Positions 17,339 through 27,665 of a stretch of DNA of 64,000 nt are shown one piece after another. The position numbers and the translations under genes are program-made. Source of the stretch: Glycocaulis abyssi (GTDB lineage: Bacteria; Pseudomonadota; Alphaproteobacteria; Caulobacterales; Maricaulaceae); NCBI RefSeq assembly GCF_041429775.1, contig NZ_CP163421.1, positions 2,195,001-2,259,000 of the forward strand, read 5' to 3'. How positions within the stretch are numbered: position 1 is the first letter of the stretch; each line of letters begins with the position of its first letter. The notes below the pieces were generated by a model that made no database searches, had not been told where the DNA came from, and saw only the letters and a list, made by a program, of their open reading frames with translations.

Positions 17339-19027
17339 TCAGAAATTGACCACCACACGCCCAATAACGCTCTGGCCGGGCGTGTCGCCCATGCCTGCCC
17401 GGTATTCCAGCTCGAAATCGACCCGGTGGCGGTAGGCCCGGTACTGATCCTCGCCAAACCAGCGCGAGACCATCACCCCGGCGCCCGCTTCCAGCCGCTC
17501 ACGCGTGACCAGGCTGTCATTGGAGATCTGGCCGACAGCGGTGAGGTAGGGCGTGACGGCCCAGCCTTCGCCTGCCCGGAAGCGCAGGCCATGGCGCACC
17601 GACGCATAAGCCGACGTGAACTGCGGATCGTCCGGTATCCAGGCCAGATCGCCATAGAGGCTGGTATAGGTCCAGCGGTCGGCAACCGGGTTCCAGTCAC
17701 CCCCTTGCGTCCAGCCATAGGAGGCCCGCAGGAGCCAGGCATCGCGCGCCAGATCACCGCCAGCGATCAGGCGTTCGCCCGCCAGGTTGAAATCATGGCT
17801 GGCAAAGGGCTTCCAGCGCACGCCGAGACCAAGCTGCAGCGTATCATCGGCAAGCGAGAGCGCCCCGGCCTCAAGGCTCTGATAGGCGCGCCCATAAAGC
17901 GTCAGCCCCCGGCCTGCACGGTACAGCCCCTCCGGCCGCCAGCCCGCCTCCATGCCGATCTGGCTTTCAAAACTGCCCTGCTCAGGCAAGGCAAACCCGC
18001 CCGGAGCCACGTCATCGCGATAGGTCAGATAGCCGGTGAAATATGTGGTCCGCTCCAGCGTCTCCACCTCGCGGCGCAGGCGGTAGACCCGCATCGGATC
18101 CTCATTGCCGGTCTGCGCAACGCTATGACGGTCAATGGCATCGCGAAAAGCAGTGGCCGCGGCGCTACGCTGTCCGGCCGCCGCGCGGGCATAGCCCTCT
18201 TCCTCGCGCACGGTGAGATTTAGCTGCTCGCGGCCTGCCACATCGGCAAAGATCAGCGCCGCATCCTCATGGCGGCCTGCCCGCCGGTAGGCATAGGCAT
18301 TGGCCAGCGCAATCTCGCGACTGTGCGGATCGGCGCTATAGGCCGCCTCCAGCGCGATGAGCGCCCCGGCATCATCGCCCGCCGCCTGCAGCCAGAGTCC
18401 CTTGTCGAAATGCCGGAAAGCGGCCGGTTCGATGGCAATGGCCCGGTCCATCCACATTGCCGCCTCGCGCGGCTGGTCAGCGGCAATCGCGCGCGCACGT
18501 TCCTCGAAAAGAAGCGCCAGCTCACTGCCGTCGAAAGCCGTTTCATCGAGCGCAGACAGCCGCGCGCGCGCTGCGCCCTCCTGGCCTGCAAGGCGTAAAG
18601 CCCGTGCGGCGCGCAAACCATCGCTGGCAGAGCGCGACAGGCTGGCCGCCTCCGCCCAGGCCCAGCGCGAGCGGTTCAGATCACCGGCAGCTTCAGCCTG
18701 GAAGCCGATGGAGCGCAGCACATAAAGCAGCGCGTCTGAGTCCAGGCCGCCAATCGTGTGGGCATAGAGATAGGCTTCCAGCGCCGTGGCCGGATCACCC
18801 AGCGTCACGGCGCAATCGCCTGCCATGATCCAGCCCTGCGCGGTACCGGCGTTGACGGCCTGCTGGCGCAAATGCTCATAGCCGCAAGCCGCCGGCTCGG
18901 AGCTGCTGGCAAAGGCCGTAACGGCGCGGGTCAGGTCCGGACCGGACTCAAACAGGAGACCGGCAGCCAGAAGGCCAAGCGCGGTGTTGAACCGCAGGCG
19001 GGTCAGGCGGGGGCGGGCGTGTCTCAT
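17339..19027 (-). CDS. NfrA-like outer-membrane TPR/beta-barrel polysaccharide exporter
   Basis: A 562-aa protein with an N-terminal signal-like hydrophobic stretch (about residues 10-25) and a periplasmic domain of TPR hairpins (about 40-300). The C-terminal half (about 320-562) has alternating strands ending VIGRVVVNF, with the terminal Phe of outer-membrane barrels. This is the arrangement of NfrA, the outer-membrane component of the N4-glycan-receptor system, but it is shorter than the roughly 990-aa E. coli protein. Its start overlaps the stop of the NfrB-like gene (ATGA). The predicted job is to export the glycan made by that glycosyltransferase. The family call rests on gene pairing plus architecture. 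Confidence 0.8.
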   Translation of the reverse strand: MRHARPRLTRLRFNTALGLLAAGLLFESGPDLTRAVTAFASSSEPAACGYEHLRQQAVNAGTAQGWIMAGDCAVTLGDPATALEAYLYAHTIGGLDSDALLYVLRSIGFQAEAAGDLNRSRWAWAEAASLSRSASDGLRAARALRLAGQEGAARARLSALDETAFDGSELALLFEERARAIAADQPREAAMWMDRAIAIEPAAFRHFDKGLWLQAAGDDAGALIALEAAYSADPHSREIALANAYAYRRAGRHEDAALIFADVAGREQLNLTVREEEGYARAAAGQRSAAATAFRDAIDRHSVAQTGNEDPMRVYRLRREVETLERTTYFTGYLTYRDDVAPGGFALPEQGSFESQIGMEAGWRPEGLYRAGRGLTLYGRAYQSLEAGALSLADDTLQLGLGVRWKPFASHDFNLAGERLIAGGDLARDAWLLRASYGWTQGGDWNPVADRWTYTSLYGDLAWIPDDPQFTSAYASVRHGLRFRAGEGWAVTPYLTAVGQISNDSLVTRERLEAGAGVMVSRWFGEDQYRAYRHRVDFELEYRAGMGDTPGQSVIGRVVVNF

Positions 19028-20778
19028 GACATGGTCTCCAGTATGCGGGCCGGAACAGGCATGGGCGGCGGGGCAGGTATAGCCTGTTTCGGCGCGCCGG
19101 CGCGTCTGTCCAGATTGAAAGTGATATGGGCTTGCGAGGGAGGAGGCAGCGCGGCACGTACCGGCGCAGGCGCAGGGCTTGCCAGCTCTGCGGTGAGCGT
19201 ATCGGGCAGGGTGCGCGCAGCCATGGGCCGCTCATGGGAGGCAAAGCTCGACTGGGTGCGGCGTATCTCCTCTGGCGAGGGATAGGAGTGCATGGTCTTG
19301 TCCCAGGTGATCGCCACGCCGGTAACCAGGTGGACGATCCAGCGCCGGTTGGCCCGCGCTGCGGCGAGAAAGCCGATATAGTTGGCAACCACCATGCGCA
19401 CCGGCACCAGCACCATGTATTTGATCCCGTGTGTGGTGCCGGTGAAGATCAGCCGGTGGACCAGCCGGTTCACCAGGAACCAGAAATTGATCAGCACGAT
19501 CGACCACACCCAGCTTTTCGGATCGATCAGCGGCGGCAGCCCGCCTGTTTCAGGAATAGTGGCAGAGATTAACCAGTACAGCGCCCACTGGACAGTGATG
19601 AAATAGGCCAGCATGCCCGTGGGCGCGGTCCAGATCGCCTTGCGGTCACGATAGAGAAAATAGCGGTGAACGAGCGGCCCGACCCATCCCAGCTGGCGCC
19701 AGCCCATATAGGAAATGCCCAGCATCCAGCGTGATTTCTGCCTTACCGACACCTTCATCTGGTCGGGGAAAAACTCGCGCGTGCACACCAGCTCGACGCG
19801 CGTGCGGCGCTTGCCTTTGGGCGTTGTCACGCGCACGCGGGCGAAATAGCGCACGAAGGCTGACTTGAACCCGGCCTCGTAGAGGCGGTGACCGATATCA
19901 TAATCCTCGGTCAGGCTGTCGGTATTGAAAGGCAGGTTCTCGCGCTCGGCATTGAGCAGATCAATGACCCGGCGCGACAGCGCGGTTGCCACCCCGGCAG
20001 AGGGCACTTGCGCGGTCATGTGGGAGCGCACGACCAGATCCTTGGTATGCCACTCGGCGAACTCGTCCATGTAATGGCCCGCCACCAGCGCATTCCAGGC
20101 ACGCGGCATGGACAGGACCGGCAATTGCACCATGTCGGCCCGGTCCAGCCACGCATTCATCACCTTGAAGGACAGGGGATGGATGACATCCTCGCTGTCA
20201 TGCATGACGAACGCGTCATAGCGCCTGCCGGTCTGCGCCTCGCGCGCAATCGCGTTCTGGACGATCCAGTTCAGGCAATCGGCTTTCGAGGTCGGGCCGG
20301 GATGGCCGACATTGGCCCGGTAGACATTGCCATGACGGGCCACCAGCGCGTCGGCCTCGCGGATCGTGTCCGCATCGTTGGGGTAGACCCCGATAAAGAT
20401 GTCATAGGCGGTGTAATCGAGCTCCTGAATGGTGTGGTCCACCATGCGGGCGATGACATCAGCCTCGTGCCAGGCCGGAATGAGTATGGCCAGGCGCTTT
20501 TCAGGCATGGCACGCAGTTTTTCCACCGAGGGGATGCGCCGGAAGGGCCGCAAGACGAGGTTCTGCGCCGTCAGCACCCAGTAATAGAGGTCCAGAAACG
20601 TGTCATCGATGGAAGAGACGAAGATCACCAGAGCGGCGTAGACCGTCGCCCAGGACAGCACCATCCAGTAGAGGCGCGCCGCTTCGCCCAGGCTTTCGCG
20701 GGTTGCCGGGTCGGCAAACCAGTCACCAAAGCCCCCGATCAGGCCCGCAGCCACCTCGATGAGAGAAAACCAGTCCAT
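19024..20778 (-). CDS. NfrB-like family 2 glycosyltransferase (inner-membrane polysaccharide synthase)
   Basis: A 584-aa processive-type GT2. Membrane segments lie near residues 38-55 and as a cluster around 390-490. Catalytic motifs are HDSEDVIHP (substrate Asp residues), TEDYD (general base) and QKSRW (the QxxRW signature of cellulose/hyaluronan-type synthases). The HDSED/TEDYD spelling matches NfrB. The E. coli protein is about 745 aa with a C-terminal MshEN c-di-GMP domain; here the C-terminus is only a Pro/Ala-rich tail of about 75 residues. It is first in an operon with the NfrA-like and TPR genes (4-bp overlap). The glycan product is unknown. Confidence 0.87.
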   Translation of the reverse strand: MDWFSLIEVAAGLIGGFGDWFADPATRESLGEAARLYWMVLSWATVYAALVIFVSSIDDTFLDLYYWVLTAQNLVLRPFRRIPSVEKLRAMPEKRLAILIPAWHEADVIARMVDHTIQELDYTAYDIFIGVYPNDADTIREADALVARHGNVYRANVGHPGPTSKADCLNWIVQNAIAREAQTGRRYDAFVMHDSEDVIHPLSFKVMNAWLDRADMVQLPVLSMPRAWNALVAGHYMDEFAEWHTKDLVVRSHMTAQVPSAGVATALSRRVIDLLNAERENLPFNTDSLTEDYDIGHRLYEAGFKSAFVRYFARVRVTTPKGKRRTRVELVCTREFFPDQMKVSVRQKSRWMLGISYMGWRQLGWVGPLVHRYFLYRDRKAIWTAPTGMLAYFITVQWALYWLISATIPETGGLPPLIDPKSWVWSIVLINFWFLVNRLVHRLIFTGTTHGIKYMVLVPVRMVVANYIGFLAAARANRRWIVHLVTGVAITWDKTMHSYPSPEEIRRTQSSFASHERPMAARTLPDTLTAELASPAPAPVRAALPPPSQAHITFNLDRRAGAPKQAIPAPPPMPVPARILETMS

Positions 20779-21122: not shown

Positions 21123-21198
<76 letters not shown>

Positions 21199-21336: not shown

Positions 21337-22626
21337 ATGACGCGCATGGAAGCCTTGACGCATTCAATGTCCACGCACGGCTTCATGCCCCACGGCATGT
21401 GCTATCTGTGGGAACCCTCCATTTTGTGGACCCATGTGCTCTCCGACGCCGCCATCGCGCTGGCCTATTTCTCCATTCCCGCCGCGCTGGCCATTTTTTC
21501 GATACGCAGACCCGACCTGGTCTACCGCCCGGTCATGTGGCTGTTCGTGGCGTTCATCCTGCTATGCGGCACGACACATCTGTTCTCCATCTGGACGGTG
21601 TGGAACCCGCATTATCAGATTGAGGGACTGCTCAAGGCCATGACAGCAGCGGTGTCGCTGGCGACCGCCATCGCGCTATGGCCATTATTGCCACGTGCGC
21701 TGGCCCTGCCCTCCAATATCCAGCTGCAACGCTCCAATCAGGCCCTTCAGGCCGAGATCGGGCGCCGGGACGAGGCCGAGGCGCGCCTGATGGCGGTGAC
21801 AGGCCAGCTTGAGCACCGTGTCATCCAGCGCACGCGCGATCTGGAACGCGCCAACGCGGCCCTGCGCCAGTTTGCCGCCGCCGCCGCCCATGATCTCCAG
21901 GCACCCTTGCGCCACATCCATATCTTCTCCCAGCTCATCGAACAGGAAGAAGCCGCCACCATGAGCGCGGACGGTCAAAAGCACCTGCTCAAGGTGCGCG
22001 AGGGCGCACAGCGCGCGCAGACCCTGATCGGCGTGCTTCAGGAATACGCGCAGCTGGTGAACCGGCTGCCGCAGGCCGAGACGGTGGAGCTGACGCGTAT
22101 CCTTGCCAGCGTGAGCTCGTCACTGGATGACGAAATCGAAGCCAGCGGCGCGTCCCTGGATTTTGACGGCTTGCCCGCCGTGGAGGGCGATACCGTCCTT
22201 CTGACCCAACTTTTTCAAAATCTGGTTTCCAACGCGATAAAGTACCGCTCCGCCCTGGCACCGGTCATTACCGTACGCGGCAGGCAAGCCGATGACGGCA
22301 TGATCGAAATTTCCATTGCAGACAATGGAATCGGGATCGATCCGGCTCACGCCCAGACCATTTTCCAGATGATGAAACGCCTCCATGACGACACCCGCTA
22401 TCCCGGCATGGGAGTCGGTCTGGCCTTCTGCAAGGAGATCGTCGAGAGCCATGGCGGCGAAATTTGGCTGGACGAAACCCACCTTCACGGCGCACGCTTC
22501 TGCCTGACCCTGCCAGCACCCGGCTCTTCGCCCGCTGGCGGCGTTGCCCGGAAAGCCAGCGAGCCAGAGGGCTCGGGGGGAGAAAATGGCGAAAAGCATC
22601 CGTCTCCTGCTCGTCGAGGACGATGA
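21337..22626 (+). CDS. sensor histidine kinase with ethylene-receptor-type membrane domain
   Basis: A 429-aa kinase. The N-terminal three-helix membrane domain (about residues 30-118) matches the ethylene-binding domain of plant ETR1 and cyanobacterial Etr1. Asp37, Tyr44, Ile47, Pro48, Ile74, Cys77 and His81 occupy exactly the spacing of ETR1 Asp25, Tyr32, Ile35, Pro36, Ile62, Cys65 and His69; the Cys/His pair binds Cu(I). A coiled coil (about 130-180), a HisKA domain with His185 in AAHDLQAPLRH, and an HATPase with NAIKY, DNGIGI and GVGLAF motifs follow. There is no GAF domain. The start ATG has a strong GGGGGAGG site. The last 41 bases overlap the response-regulator gene, so the two form a pair. 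Confidence 0.9.
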   Translation: MTRMEALTHSMSTHGFMPHGMCYLWEPSILWTHVLSDAAIALAYFSIPAALAIFSIRRPDLVYRPVMWLFVAFILLCGTTHLFSIWTVWNPHYQIEGLLKAMTAAVSLATAIALWPLLPRALALPSNIQLQRSNQALQAEIGRRDEAEARLMAVTGQLEHRVIQRTRDLERANAALRQFAAAAAHDLQAPLRHIHIFSQLIEQEEAATMSADGQKHLLKVREGAQRAQTLIGVLQEYAQLVNRLPQAETVELTRILASVSSSLDDEIEASGASLDFDGLPAVEGDTVLLTQLFQNLVSNAIKYRSALAPVITVRGRQADDGMIEISIADNGIGIDPAHAQTIFQMMKRLHDDTRYPGMGVGLAFCKEIVESHGGEIWLDETHLHGARFCLTLPAPGSSPAGGVARKASEPEGSGGENGEKHPSPARRGR

Positions 22627-22996
22627 GAGTGACGCGTTCCTGACCAAGCGTGCCTTTGCCGACATGAAAGGCACCAATCTCATGCATGTGCCGGGCGGAC
22701 AGGCGGCGCTGGATGCGCTGCAATCGGGCCGGTTCGACATCATGCTGCTTGATCTGAACCTGCCGGGCCTCTCCGGCCACCAGGTCATCACGGCCTTGCG
22801 CGAACGCGAAGAGCCGGAGCTGGTGCCGATCATCGTGTTCACGTCGTCAAACCATCCCGGCGACGTCAACAGGGCCTATGAGGCCGGGGCCAGCGCCTAT
22901 GTGCGCAAACCCGACAGCCTGGGCGGCTACCAGCAGGTGGCCGACGCGGTATGCCGCTTCTGGCGGGATCATGCCGAGATACCCGGCCGGCACTGA
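22586..22996 (+). CDS. single-domain response regulator (partner of the ethylene-type kinase)
   Basis: A 136-aa stand-alone receiver of the Rcp1/CheY-like type, with the acidic pocket Glu11-Asp12-Asp13, phospho-acceptor Asp56 in MLLDLNLPG, a Thr/Ser switch in VFTSS and Lys in AYVRKPDS. No output domain is present, so it signals by protein contact or phosphotransfer. The start ATG has GGGGGGAG upstream and lies inside the 3' end of the kinase gene, which strongly suggests coupled translation. A 14-residue longer frame from 22544 has no ribosome-binding site. Confidence 0.92.
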   Translation: MAKSIRLLLVEDDESDAFLTKRAFADMKGTNLMHVPGGQAALDALQSGRFDIMLLDLNLPGLSGHQVITALREREEPELVPIIVFTSSNHPGDVNRAYEAGASAYVRKPDSLGGYQQVADAVCRFWRDHAEIPGRH

Positions 22997-23107: not shown

Positions 23108-23413
23108 ATGACCTTTGGTCAGGCCCTGATTATCTATTTCATCATTCCGGTACTGAATATTCTGGTACTGCTCATCTTCGTGAACGTGGTGCTGAGCTGG
23201 CTCGTCGCCTTCAACGTGGTCAATCCGCAAAACCAGTTCGTCAACACGATCTGGCGGGTAACCAGCGCGCTGACCGAACCGGTCCTTGCACCGATCCGCC
23301 GCATCCTGCCGCCTCTGGGCGGGATTGACCTCTCGCCGCTGGTCCTGCTGCTCATCATCTTCTTCGTGCGCGAATGGGTGATTATGGGGCAGATATTCCC
23401 GGCTCTGGGCTAG
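23108..23413 (+). CDS. YggT family membrane protein
   Basis: A 101-aa protein with two hydrophobic segments (about residues 8-30 and 75-95) and the central NxVNPQNQFVNTIWRVTSALTEPVLAPIRRILPP-like signature of the YggT family (residues 37-70), in which the TEP.L.PIRR core is the hallmark. Family members are linked to osmotic tolerance, cell division or organelle-like membrane organisation. It lies 5 bp upstream of folD and is probably cotranscribed. The function is not established biochemically. Confidence 0.93.
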   Translation: MTFGQALIIYFIIPVLNILVLLIFVNVVLSWLVAFNVVNPQNQFVNTIWRVTSALTEPVLAPIRRILPPLGGIDLSPLVLLLIIFFVREWVIMGQIFPALG

Positions 23414-24376: not shown

Positions 24377-24802
24377 ATGAACGCTGTTGCACAAACAACC
24401 CAGACCCTGCGCGTCCTGCATGTCGAGGATGATTTCGCCGACGCCATGTTGCTGCAGCAGGCTCTGTGCGATGCAGGCGGCTATGAGTTCGAGCTGGAAG
24501 TGGTGCGCACGCTGACCGATGCCAAGCGCAAGCTGGCCCGGCGCCAGTATGATCTCATCATTGTTGATCTGCGCCTGCCGGACTCAATAGATCCCGCCGA
24601 CACGGTGCGCACGGCAGAAAAGATCGCGCGCGGCACGCCGGTTCTGGTGCTGACCGGCTCGGCGCGAGTGGATGCCGAAGCGCTGGGTCCGCACCTGACC
24701 ATTCTGGACAAGAACGAGTTCTTCAACGGCAAGGACCGCACGGCGAGCTTCCGCCTGATGCGAAAAGTCCAGGACGCCGCCAACGACGCGCTGCATCTTT
24801 AA
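24377..24802 (+). CDS. single-domain response regulator
   Basis: A 141-aa receiver-only protein, with Glu17-Asp18-Asp19 acidic residues, acceptor Asp64 in IIVDLRLPDS and the switch Thr in LVLTGSA. The final strand region is ILDKNEFF, with the lysine retained. It belongs to the same general class as the regulator at 22586 but is clearly diverged. No kinase is adjacent; the nearest is the ethylene-type kinase 1.75 kb upstream, so it could be a second target of that kinase. No output domain. Confidence 0.88.
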   Translation: MNAVAQTTQTLRVLHVEDDFADAMLLQQALCDAGGYEFELEVVRTLTDAKRKLARRQYDLIIVDLRLPDSIDPADTVRTAEKIARGTPVLVLTGSARVDAEALGPHLTILDKNEFFNGKDRTASFRLMRKVQDAANDALHL

Positions 24803-25715: not shown

Positions 25716-27665
25716 TTGCGCACTACACCATTATCCATGGCGGTTACCGCTTTAGCTGTGGGTCTGTTGCTGGCAGCTTTTGTGGCTCTGGCATGGCTGT
25801 CATATACGCCTGCATCCTTGCAGAGTCAGCCAGAGCCCGGTCTTGAGCGTTATGCGCTGATCATCGGCGCGGCGCAGTATCGCAGCCTGCCATCCCGCTC
25901 AGACTATGCGCGCCAGGCCAGGGCCATGGCACGTCATGCCGAGCAGTCGGGCTATGCCCTGATCAGTGGCGGGCCGGTGCTCAATCCCACCGAGTACGAG
26001 TTGCGCCGTGCGATCGATATTCTGGGCAGGCTGACAGAAGGCGGGGCGGAGGCATTCATCTACTTTGCTGGCCACGCCATCCCCGGACAGGATACGATCT
26101 TCCTTCTGTCCACCGATTCCGAGCCACCGCCGCTGGTGCTCTATGCCGAGGGCGGCATGCGCCTTGAGGAAGCCTGGAGCCATCCCATTGGCAGCGGGCC
26201 GTCCAGCACGGTCATCGTCATCGAGACCGAGGGTGTGGGCGGACTGTTCAGCGGCGGGATATCGGCCTTCGGCACCGGATTTGACACGCTTGAAGTCCCA
26301 GACAGCGTCACAGTGGCGATCAGTGACCGGGGCGGGCCGGTGACGGTCGAGGGCAATGCGTTCCACCGTGTCAGCCCCGCCCGGCCGCGCCTGATCTTCG
26401 AGGCCCGTGACCGCGAGGATGTCCGCCCAGCCTTCTTCACGCCCTCGCTGGTGGAGCTGCGCCTGCTGGAGGAAGCCGACCTGACGGCGGCCCTCGAACT
26501 GGCAAGCCTGCACGTGCACGAATACACATCCGGACAGCTCAGCCCGGTAATTTTTGACCGCAGCTTGCTGGATGTCGCCCCGCCAGCCCGCAGCGAACCG
26601 CCGGCGATCGTGCTGGCCGAAACCGAACTCCTCATAGACGAGGCTCCACCCCCCGACCTGCCCGGCAGTGCCAGCGTCACCGCTGATCTCGTCTTGCATG
26701 ACACCACTGACATCATCTTGCCGGCCGCGCGCTCCGAGAGTCAGGCCGGCCAGTCCGTCATCGAGTTGATACAGATGTTCGAGGCGTTCCGCGGTGAGAC
26801 CTATCTGGACGCTGCGGGCATTCCCACCATCGGGTACGGCCATACCGGCCGCGAGGCACGCACAGGCAATGTGATCACCCATGGACGCGCGGTCGAACTG
26901 CTCATGGAGGATATCGACATCGCGGCGGCGGCGGTTGACGCAGCCGTCACCCGGCCCCTGACCGATAATCAGCGCAACGCCCTGATATCGCTTGTATTCA
27001 ACATAGGCGGCCAGGCGTTCCGCAATTCCACACTTCTGCGCCTGATCAATAGCGATATCCATTCGGTCAGCGCCGCCCAGTTTCTGCGCTGGGTGCATGC
27101 GCGCGTGCCCGGCAGCGGGATGCGGGCCTTACGCGGACTGGAAAGCCGCCGCCAGCTGGAAGCCTTCCTTTTCCTCGTCGAGGAGGACAGCGTTACCGCG
27201 CGCGAGCTGATCATCTCGTTCGAGCCCTTCCGCGCCAGCGCCACACGCGTGCGCAACTGTTCCGTCATCGGATATGGCCGCGCGCTCCGGCCCTGCGAAG
27301 AGGAGTTCGACACTCAGATCAGCCAGGTGGAAGCGCTGCAGTATCTGCGCCGGGAGCTCGTGCAGATAGAGAGCGAGCTGCGCGCCCTTGTCGGCGTTCC
27401 GGTATCGCAGGCGCAGATGGCGGCTCTGGTATCCTTCGTACATCAGAACGGGCTGGAAGCCTTTGAGCGCTCGCGCATCCTCGCGCGGCTCAATCAGGGC
27501 GACTATACCGGCGCGGCCAATGCGCTGCGCCTGCATAACGCCTTTACTGGCGCCCCGGCCATGCAGGTCGGTCAGAGCCAGATCGAGCGGCGCGCCGCCG
27601 AAGCCGCACTCTTCTTCGCCCATGGCGGGGATTATGTGGTCATGCCAGGGGAGGCCGCATCCTGA
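25716..27665 (+). CDS. exported caspase-like pseudoenzyme fused to two GH24-type lysozyme domains
   Basis: A 649-aa protein. Residues 10-30 form a membrane anchor or signal. Residues 44-180 resemble a caspase/metacaspase p20 unit: YALIIGAAQY first strand and His120 in FIYFAGH; the strand expected to carry the catalytic Cys reads VIVIETEGVGG with no Cys. Residues 347-486 form a GH24 lysozyme with the T4-type triad Glu356, Asp365, Thr371 at the canonical spacing and a GYGHT loop. Residues 494-635 are a second lysozyme-like copy that keeps Glu503 but lacks the Asp and Thr, and has GYGR. The start is taken as TTG with GTGAGG upstream; an ATG at 25737 is possible. The upstream spacer is AT-rich. 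Confidence 0.8.
   Translation: MRTTPLSMAVTALAVGLLLAAFVALAWLSYTPASLQSQPEPGLERYALIIGAAQYRSLPSRSDYARQARAMARHAEQSGYALISGGPVLNPTEYELRRAIDILGRLTEGGAEAFIYFAGHAIPGQDTIFLLSTDSEPPPLVLYAEGGMRLEEAWSHPIGSGPSSTVIVIETEGVGGLFSGGISAFGTGFDTLEVPDSVTVAISDRGGPVTVEGNAFHRVSPARPRLIFEARDREDVRPAFFTPSLVELRLLEEADLTAALELASLHVHEYTSGQLSPVIFDRSLLDVAPPARSEPPAIVLAETELLIDEAPPPDLPGSASVTADLVLHDTTDIILPAARSESQAGQSVIELIQMFEAFRGETYLDAAGIPTIGYGHTGREARTGNVITHGRAVELLMEDIDIAAAAVDAAVTRPLTDNQRNALISLVFNIGGQAFRNSTLLRLINSDIHSVSAAQFLRWVHARVPGSGMRALRGLESRRQLEAFLFLVEEDSVTARELIISFEPFRASATRVRNCSVIGYGRALRPCEEEFDTQISQVEALQYLRRELVQIESELRALVGVPVSQAQMAALVSFVHQNGLEAFERSRILARLNQGDYTGAANALRLHNAFTGAPAMQVGQSQIERRAAEAALFFAHGGDYVVMPGEAAS

What the first reader, a model, noticed from the sequence alone, without database searches (positions are those of the whole stretch)
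21337..22996. A two-component system whose kinase carries an intact ethylene-receptor copper-binding domain
The membrane domain of the kinase has Asp37, Tyr44, Ile47, Pro48, Ile74, Cys77 and His81, spaced exactly like the ethylene-binding residues of plant ETR1 (Asp25, Tyr32, Ile35, Pro36, Ile62, Cys65, His69), including the CGTTH box for Cu(I). Bacterial homologues are known mainly from cyanobacteria (Etr1, ethylene and light), so an apparent ethylene sensor in a marine-type alphaproteobacterium is noteworthy. The kinase lacks the GAF domain usually found next to this domain and overlaps by 41 bp a receiver-only regulator, implying a dedicated short pathway. Ethylene from algae or photochemistry could be the cue. 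Spacing is read from sequence; sensing is inference.
Basis: partly seen in the sequence, partly recalled or inferred. Interest (0 to 1): 0.82.

Follow-up and report, generated by a model that had tools for sequence, protein, structure and literature searches.

The report
Ethylene receptor kinase in Glycocaulis abyssi
A bacterium first isolated beside a deep-sea vent carries an intact copy of the membrane switch that plants use to detect ethylene, wired to a short two-protein signalling pathway; such receptors are already known and even proven in a related bacterium, so this is a sound new member of a known kind, with two unexpected details in its relatives.

Summary
Window 21337-22626 (+) encodes a histidine kinase with a complete ethylene-receptor domain (Pfam ETR1_N, E=2e-38), all seven ETR1 binding residues, HisKA and HATPase domains, and a receiver-only regulator directly downstream. 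Contig lengths identify the genome as Glycocaulis abyssi LMG 27140T. The pair is a cassette between tRNA-Ala and yggT, present in 5 of 6 Glycocaulis. Most likely it is a Cu(I)-dependent ethylene sensor phosphorylating EtrR; ethylene binding is inferred. Two side results are less expected. (1) Bacterial domains carry a near-invariant PHGxC motif before helix 1, lost together with the copper ligands: a candidate copper-loading site. (2) In 8 of 16 Maricaulis genomes the ethylene domain is a stand-alone gene beside a separate membrane kinase found in exactly the same 8 genomes: a candidate split receptor.

The parts
21337..22626 (+). etrK: ethylene-receptor-type histidine kinase, 429 aa (ETR1_N + coiled coil + HisKA + HATPase_c)
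21388..21411 (+). PHGxCxxW motif (residues 18-25) just before helix 1; near-invariant in bacterial members
21415..21678 (+). three transmembrane helices of the ethylene-binding domain (residues 27-57, 64-89, 93-114)
   Evidence: AlphaFold2 model, mean pLDDT 91; Pfam ETR1_N residues 29-124; hydropathy
21565..21579 (+). CGTTH box, Cys77 to His81: putative Cu(I) ligands
21859..22521 (+). HisKA (175-240, H185) and HATPase_c (284-395) transmitter
22549..22626 (+). species-specific C-terminal tail created by loss of the stop codon kept in sister species; low model confidence
22586..22996 (+). etrR: receiver-only response regulator, 136 aa, conserved tandem partner
21123..21198 (-). tRNA-Ala (CGC): left border of the cassette
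23108..23413 (+). yggT: right border of the cassette; 129-183 bp from the tRNA in six relatives without the pair

Best explanation
etrK-etrR is a bacterial ethylene-receptor two-component system. The three-helix membrane domain of an EtrK dimer holds Cu(I) through Cys77 and His81 in helix 2 (shown: residues and helix; inferred: copper) and binds ethylene at that metal (inferred from family members). Binding changes the coiled coil that leads straight into the HisKA helices (shown: continuous helix in the model; inferred: switching), most likely lowering autophosphorylation of His185 as argued for other receptors. Phosphate passes to EtrR (inferred from the conserved tandem), which has no output domain and must act by protein contact or as a relay shuttle. 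Copper probably arrives from the periplasm after export by a CopA-type ATPase, possibly first caught by His19/Cys22.
For: Pfam ETR1_N E=2e-38. All seven ETR1 residues plus Lys100, the counterpart of AzoEtr1 Lys98 and ETR1 Lys91. 50% identity over 148 residues to AzoEtr1, whose first 130 residues bind 14C-ethylene saturably and in which Asp35 and Cys75 were mutated. Confident three-helix model with Cys77 and His81 at i, i+4. H-box, N, G1 and G2 residues conserved. Kinase-regulator tandem in all five Glycocaulis that have it and in several other lineages. A Cu-transporting ATPase is present in the genome, but that is true of most bacteria.
Against: No binding, copper or phosphorylation data for this protein. 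No solved structure of any ethylene-binding domain was found to check the model. The kinase domain is only 28% identical to AzoEtr1's, and EtrR gives no significant match to AzoRR, so output cannot be carried over. The pair is absent from one Glycocaulis genome and most of the family, so it is dispensable. In G495 an intact kinase sits at the same locus without the regulator.
Confidence: 0.75

Rival explanations
1. EtrK is a copper sensor: the domain binds Cu(I) and the kinase reports copper status of the periplasm, with ethylene binding incidental.
For: The most invariant residues include metal-type ligands (H19, C22, C77, H81), and the domain recurs in organisms with no obvious plant or algal contact.
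Against: No copper resistance genes adjoin the pair. Tyr44, Ile47 and Pro48, which in ETR1 serve ethylene binding, are also kept here. AzoEtr1 and SynEtr1 act as ethylene receptors.
Confidence: 0.1
2. EtrK senses another small ligand of Cu(I), such as another alkene, acetylene or carbon monoxide, in vent or hydrocarbon settings.
For: The source is a vent isolate; Cu(I) olefin sites are not perfectly selective (general knowledge of ETR1 chemistry).
Against: The ethylene residues are the standard set, and relatives come from soil, mats and surface water.
Confidence: 0.1
3. The domain is a relict membrane anchor and the kinase answers to something else.
For: Degenerate copies exist at the same locus in three family members (L194, L195, L196: AGLAH in place of CGTTH in the one read in full).
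Against: In this genome and its four congeners every key residue is kept; where the site decayed, another intact copy is present elsewhere.
Confidence: 0.05

Closest known systems
AzoEtr1-AzoRRetr1, Azospirillum brasilense (PMC11819568)
   Same: Alphaproteobacterial; ethylene-binding domain with all seven residues and PHGxC motif, 50% identical over 148 residues; histidine kinase; receiver-only regulator next door.
   Different: AzoEtr1 has a PAS domain, a different kinase subfamily (28% identity) and a regulator without significant similarity to EtrR.
SynEtr1 (Slr1212)-Slr1213, Synechocystis
   Same: Ethylene-binding domain on a histidine kinase with a downstream regulator.
   Different: SynEtr1 is also a light receptor and its regulator activates transcription of a small RNA (as described in PMC11819568); EtrK has no photosensory domain and EtrR no output domain.
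Plant ETR1
   Same: Three-helix Cu(I) domain with the same seven residues and spacing.
   Different: ETR1 has GAF and fused receiver domains and signals mainly without the kinase; its N-terminus has Cys4/Cys6 (from memory) rather than PHGxC, and its helix 2-3 loop is three residues longer by residue numbering.

Membership tests
Ethylene-receptor (ETR1_N) kinases | Significant match to the ETR1_N profile | tested here: met
   E=2.1e-38, 130.9 bits, cut-off 27
Ethylene-receptor (ETR1_N) kinases | Seven binding residues D25 Y32 I35 P36 I62 C65 H69 | tested here: met
   D37 Y44 I47 P48 I74 C77 H81
Ethylene-receptor (ETR1_N) kinases | Three transmembrane helices with Cys and His on one face of helix 2 | tested here: met
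   Helices 27-57, 64-89, 93-114, pLDDT above 90; C77 and H81 at i, i+4; no coordinates or dimer available
Ethylene-receptor (ETR1_N) kinases | Copper-dependent ethylene binding | not testable with these tools
   Needs expression and 14C-ethylene assay
Plant-type ethylene receptors (ETR1/ERS1) | GAF domain after the membrane domain | tested here: not met
   No GAF or PAS; excludes the plant-type architecture, not the bacterial family
Two-component system | Phosphoacceptor His, N, G1 and G2 boxes in the kinase | tested here: met
   H185, N295, N299, D329, G331, G333, G359, G361 nearly invariant in 27 relatives
Two-component system | Receiver with acidic pair, phosphoacceptor Asp, Thr/Ser and Lys | tested here: met
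   EDD, LLLDLNLPG, FTSS and RKP visible in the sequence; Response_reg E=4.7e-20
Two-component system | Phosphotransfer between this kinase and this regulator | not testable with these tools
   Only the conserved tandem supports it

The most novel reading that the evidence does not exclude
Bacterial ethylene receptors have a second, periplasmic Cu(I) site formed by the PHGxC motif that loads the ethylene-binding copper; and in Maricaulis the receptor is split, with a stand-alone ethylene-binding protein controlling a separate membrane kinase in trans.
Probability: 0.25. Interest if true: 0.7.

Novelty: new member of a known kind. Interest (0 to 1): 0.45.

Why it matters
Ethylene sensing outside plants rests on very few tested proteins. 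This adds a minimal, culturable case (EtrK lacks light, GAF and PAS domains) in an organism first isolated near a hydrothermal vent, where plant or algal ethylene is not an obvious source. A minimal receptor with a single-domain regulator suits direct biochemical tests of how ethylene changes kinase activity. If the PHGxC motif loads copper, it would show how these receptors get their metal without a plant-type delivery system. If the Maricaulis pair is a split receptor, the ethylene switch can be studied apart from the kinase it controls.

Tried and rejected
Structure search of the domain model against solved structures found nothing significant (best E 0.92), and a sequence search of the domain found no solved relative: no template was found. 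The 80 relatives fetched by peptide patterns were not used to judge the PHGxC motif, because one search pattern was that motif; only loci found with the Pfam profile, which lacks the motif, or lying at the yggT locus were counted. In that count, five truncated yggT-centred loci (L122-L126) were removed by hand. A cyanobacterial origin of this domain was considered; in the tree it groups with other proteobacterial, mostly alphaproteobacterial, domains, but deep forks are weak. A literature search for 'PHGHC' found nothing, as did one joining ethylene-binding domain with marine bacteria. The overlap as a sign of translational coupling was rejected because sister species lack it. A CHASE domain in the Maricaulis kinase was suspected, but Pfam did not support it.

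Full report
What is there. Window 21337-22626 (+) encodes a 429-residue protein with ETR1_N (residues 29-124, E=2.1e-38), HisKA and HATPase_c domains and no GAF or PAS. HisKA scores just under Pfam's cut-off (25.4 against 26.9 bits), but the phosphoacceptor His185 and its surroundings are conserved. The next gene, 22586-22996, is a receiver-only regulator (Response_reg E=4.7e-20). The domain occurs once in this genome, and 14 control genomes give no match.

Which organism. The assembly's two contigs are 2,883,807 and 169,948 bp, exactly the chromosome and plasmid of Glycocaulis abyssi LMG 27140T, isolated at 1,762 m near a black smoker (PMC11559359). By the same table G001 is G. alkaliphilus 6B-8, G506 is Maricaulis maris ATCC 15285T and G495 is an Oceanicaulis metagenome genome.

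Is it more than a motif. The AlphaFold2 model of the domain, built on 66 aligned relatives, has mean pLDDT 91 and helices at 27-57, 64-89 and 93-114; Cys77 and His81 sit at i, i+4 in the second. No coordinates were available, so side-chain geometry and the dimer were not examined. The full-length model shows one continuous helix from 127 to 205, joining the membrane domain to the phosphoacceptor helix. Catalytic residues are conserved across 27 relatives.

What is known already. AzoEtr1 of Azospirillum brasilense is a proven ethylene receptor: its first 130 residues bind 14C-ethylene, disruption abolishes binding by cells, ethylene lowers biofilm formation, and a 135-residue receiver-only regulator is encoded next door (PMC11819568). 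I recovered it from an A. brasilense plasmid. EtrK is 50% identical to it over 148 residues, but the kinase parts share only 28% and the two regulators gave no significant match. So the same sensor seems to have been joined to different kinase-regulator pairs.

How common. In an even sample of 398 Pseudomonadota genomes, 28 pass the family cut-off; in the window's own family 24 of 137 do. Relatives also come from Cyanobacteriota, Acidobacteriota, Balneolota, Gemmatimonadota and others. Short kinases without GAF or PAS are common.

The locus. Five of six Glycocaulis genomes have the gene. In those examined the order is tRNA-Ala(CGC), etrK, etrR, yggT, with folD, a second receiver gene and an SDR gene following where the fetched stretch reaches them. 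In six genomes without the pair at this place, including the sixth Glycocaulis, tRNA-Ala and yggT lie 129-183 bp apart, against 1,873-1,900 bp where the pair is present. Three other family members keep at this place a kinase whose domain has decayed (AGLAH in the one read in full) and have an intact copy elsewhere. The 41-bp overlap is not conserved: sister species stop at VTQ* or similar, where this species reads on into a low-confidence tail.

Side result 1, the PHGxC motif. Residues 18-25 (PHGMCYLW) lie directly before helix 1. P18, H19, G20 and C22 are invariant in 66 aligned relatives, but that set is biased because one search pattern contained the motif. Among loci found without using the motif, 40 distinct domains have both H19/C22 and C77/H81, 2 have only the copper pair, 1 has only the motif, and 6 have neither after removing five truncated loci (Fisher p about 1e-5, not corrected for relatedness). 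AzoEtr1 has the motif too. With a cytoplasmic kinase and three helices it should face the periplasm (inference). A copper-loading role and a structural disulphide role are both possible.

Side result 2, split receptors. In eight genomes of one genus, identified as Maricaulis, the domain is a stand-alone protein of about 120-140 residues, with motif and copper ligands intact, directly followed by or overlapping a separate kinase gene with its own membrane and periplasmic region. That kinase's sensor region was found in exactly the same 8 of 16 genomes of the genus (1 in 12,870 if independent, not corrected for relatedness). In the tree these domains form one clade apart from EtrK. A single Sericytochromatia MAG (L068) may be a second case. 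That the two proteins work together is inference.

Mechanism. Shown: residues, fold prediction, kinase and regulator integrity, conserved tandem. Inferred: copper, ethylene binding, direction of switching, phosphotransfer, and everything downstream of EtrR. A divergent NfrA/NfrB-like surface-glycan pair lies upstream in three other Glycocaulis genomes as well; since ethylene receptors alter biofilm in other bacteria, it is a candidate output, but nothing tests this.

Noticed in passing
L162 (1971-4128), L186-L192: In eight Maricaulis genomes the ethylene-binding domain is a stand-alone gene next to a separate membrane histidine kinase, and the two co-occur perfectly in 16 genomes of the genus.
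   Followed up: partly
21388-21411: PHGxCxxW motif ahead of helix 1, near-invariant in bacterial ethylene-receptor domains and lost with the copper ligands.
   Followed up: partly
L194, L195, L196: Degenerate ethylene-receptor kinases (AGLAH instead of CGTTH in L194) at the orthologous yggT locus in genomes that keep an intact copy elsewhere.
   Followed up: partly
17339-20778: NfrA-like and NfrB-like (glycosyltransferase) genes, divergent from etrK; the arrangement is kept in three other Glycocaulis genomes.
   Followed up: partly
24377-24802: A second receiver-only gene after folD, present in the family also where etrK-etrR is missing.
   Followed up: partly
25716-27665: Protein with two phage-lysozyme repeats and a weak caspase-like (Peptidase_C14) match at its N-terminus.
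   Followed up: no
L068 3986-6269: Possible second split receptor in a Sericytochromatia MAG: domain with coiled coil, overlapping a separate membrane kinase ORF.
   Followed up: no
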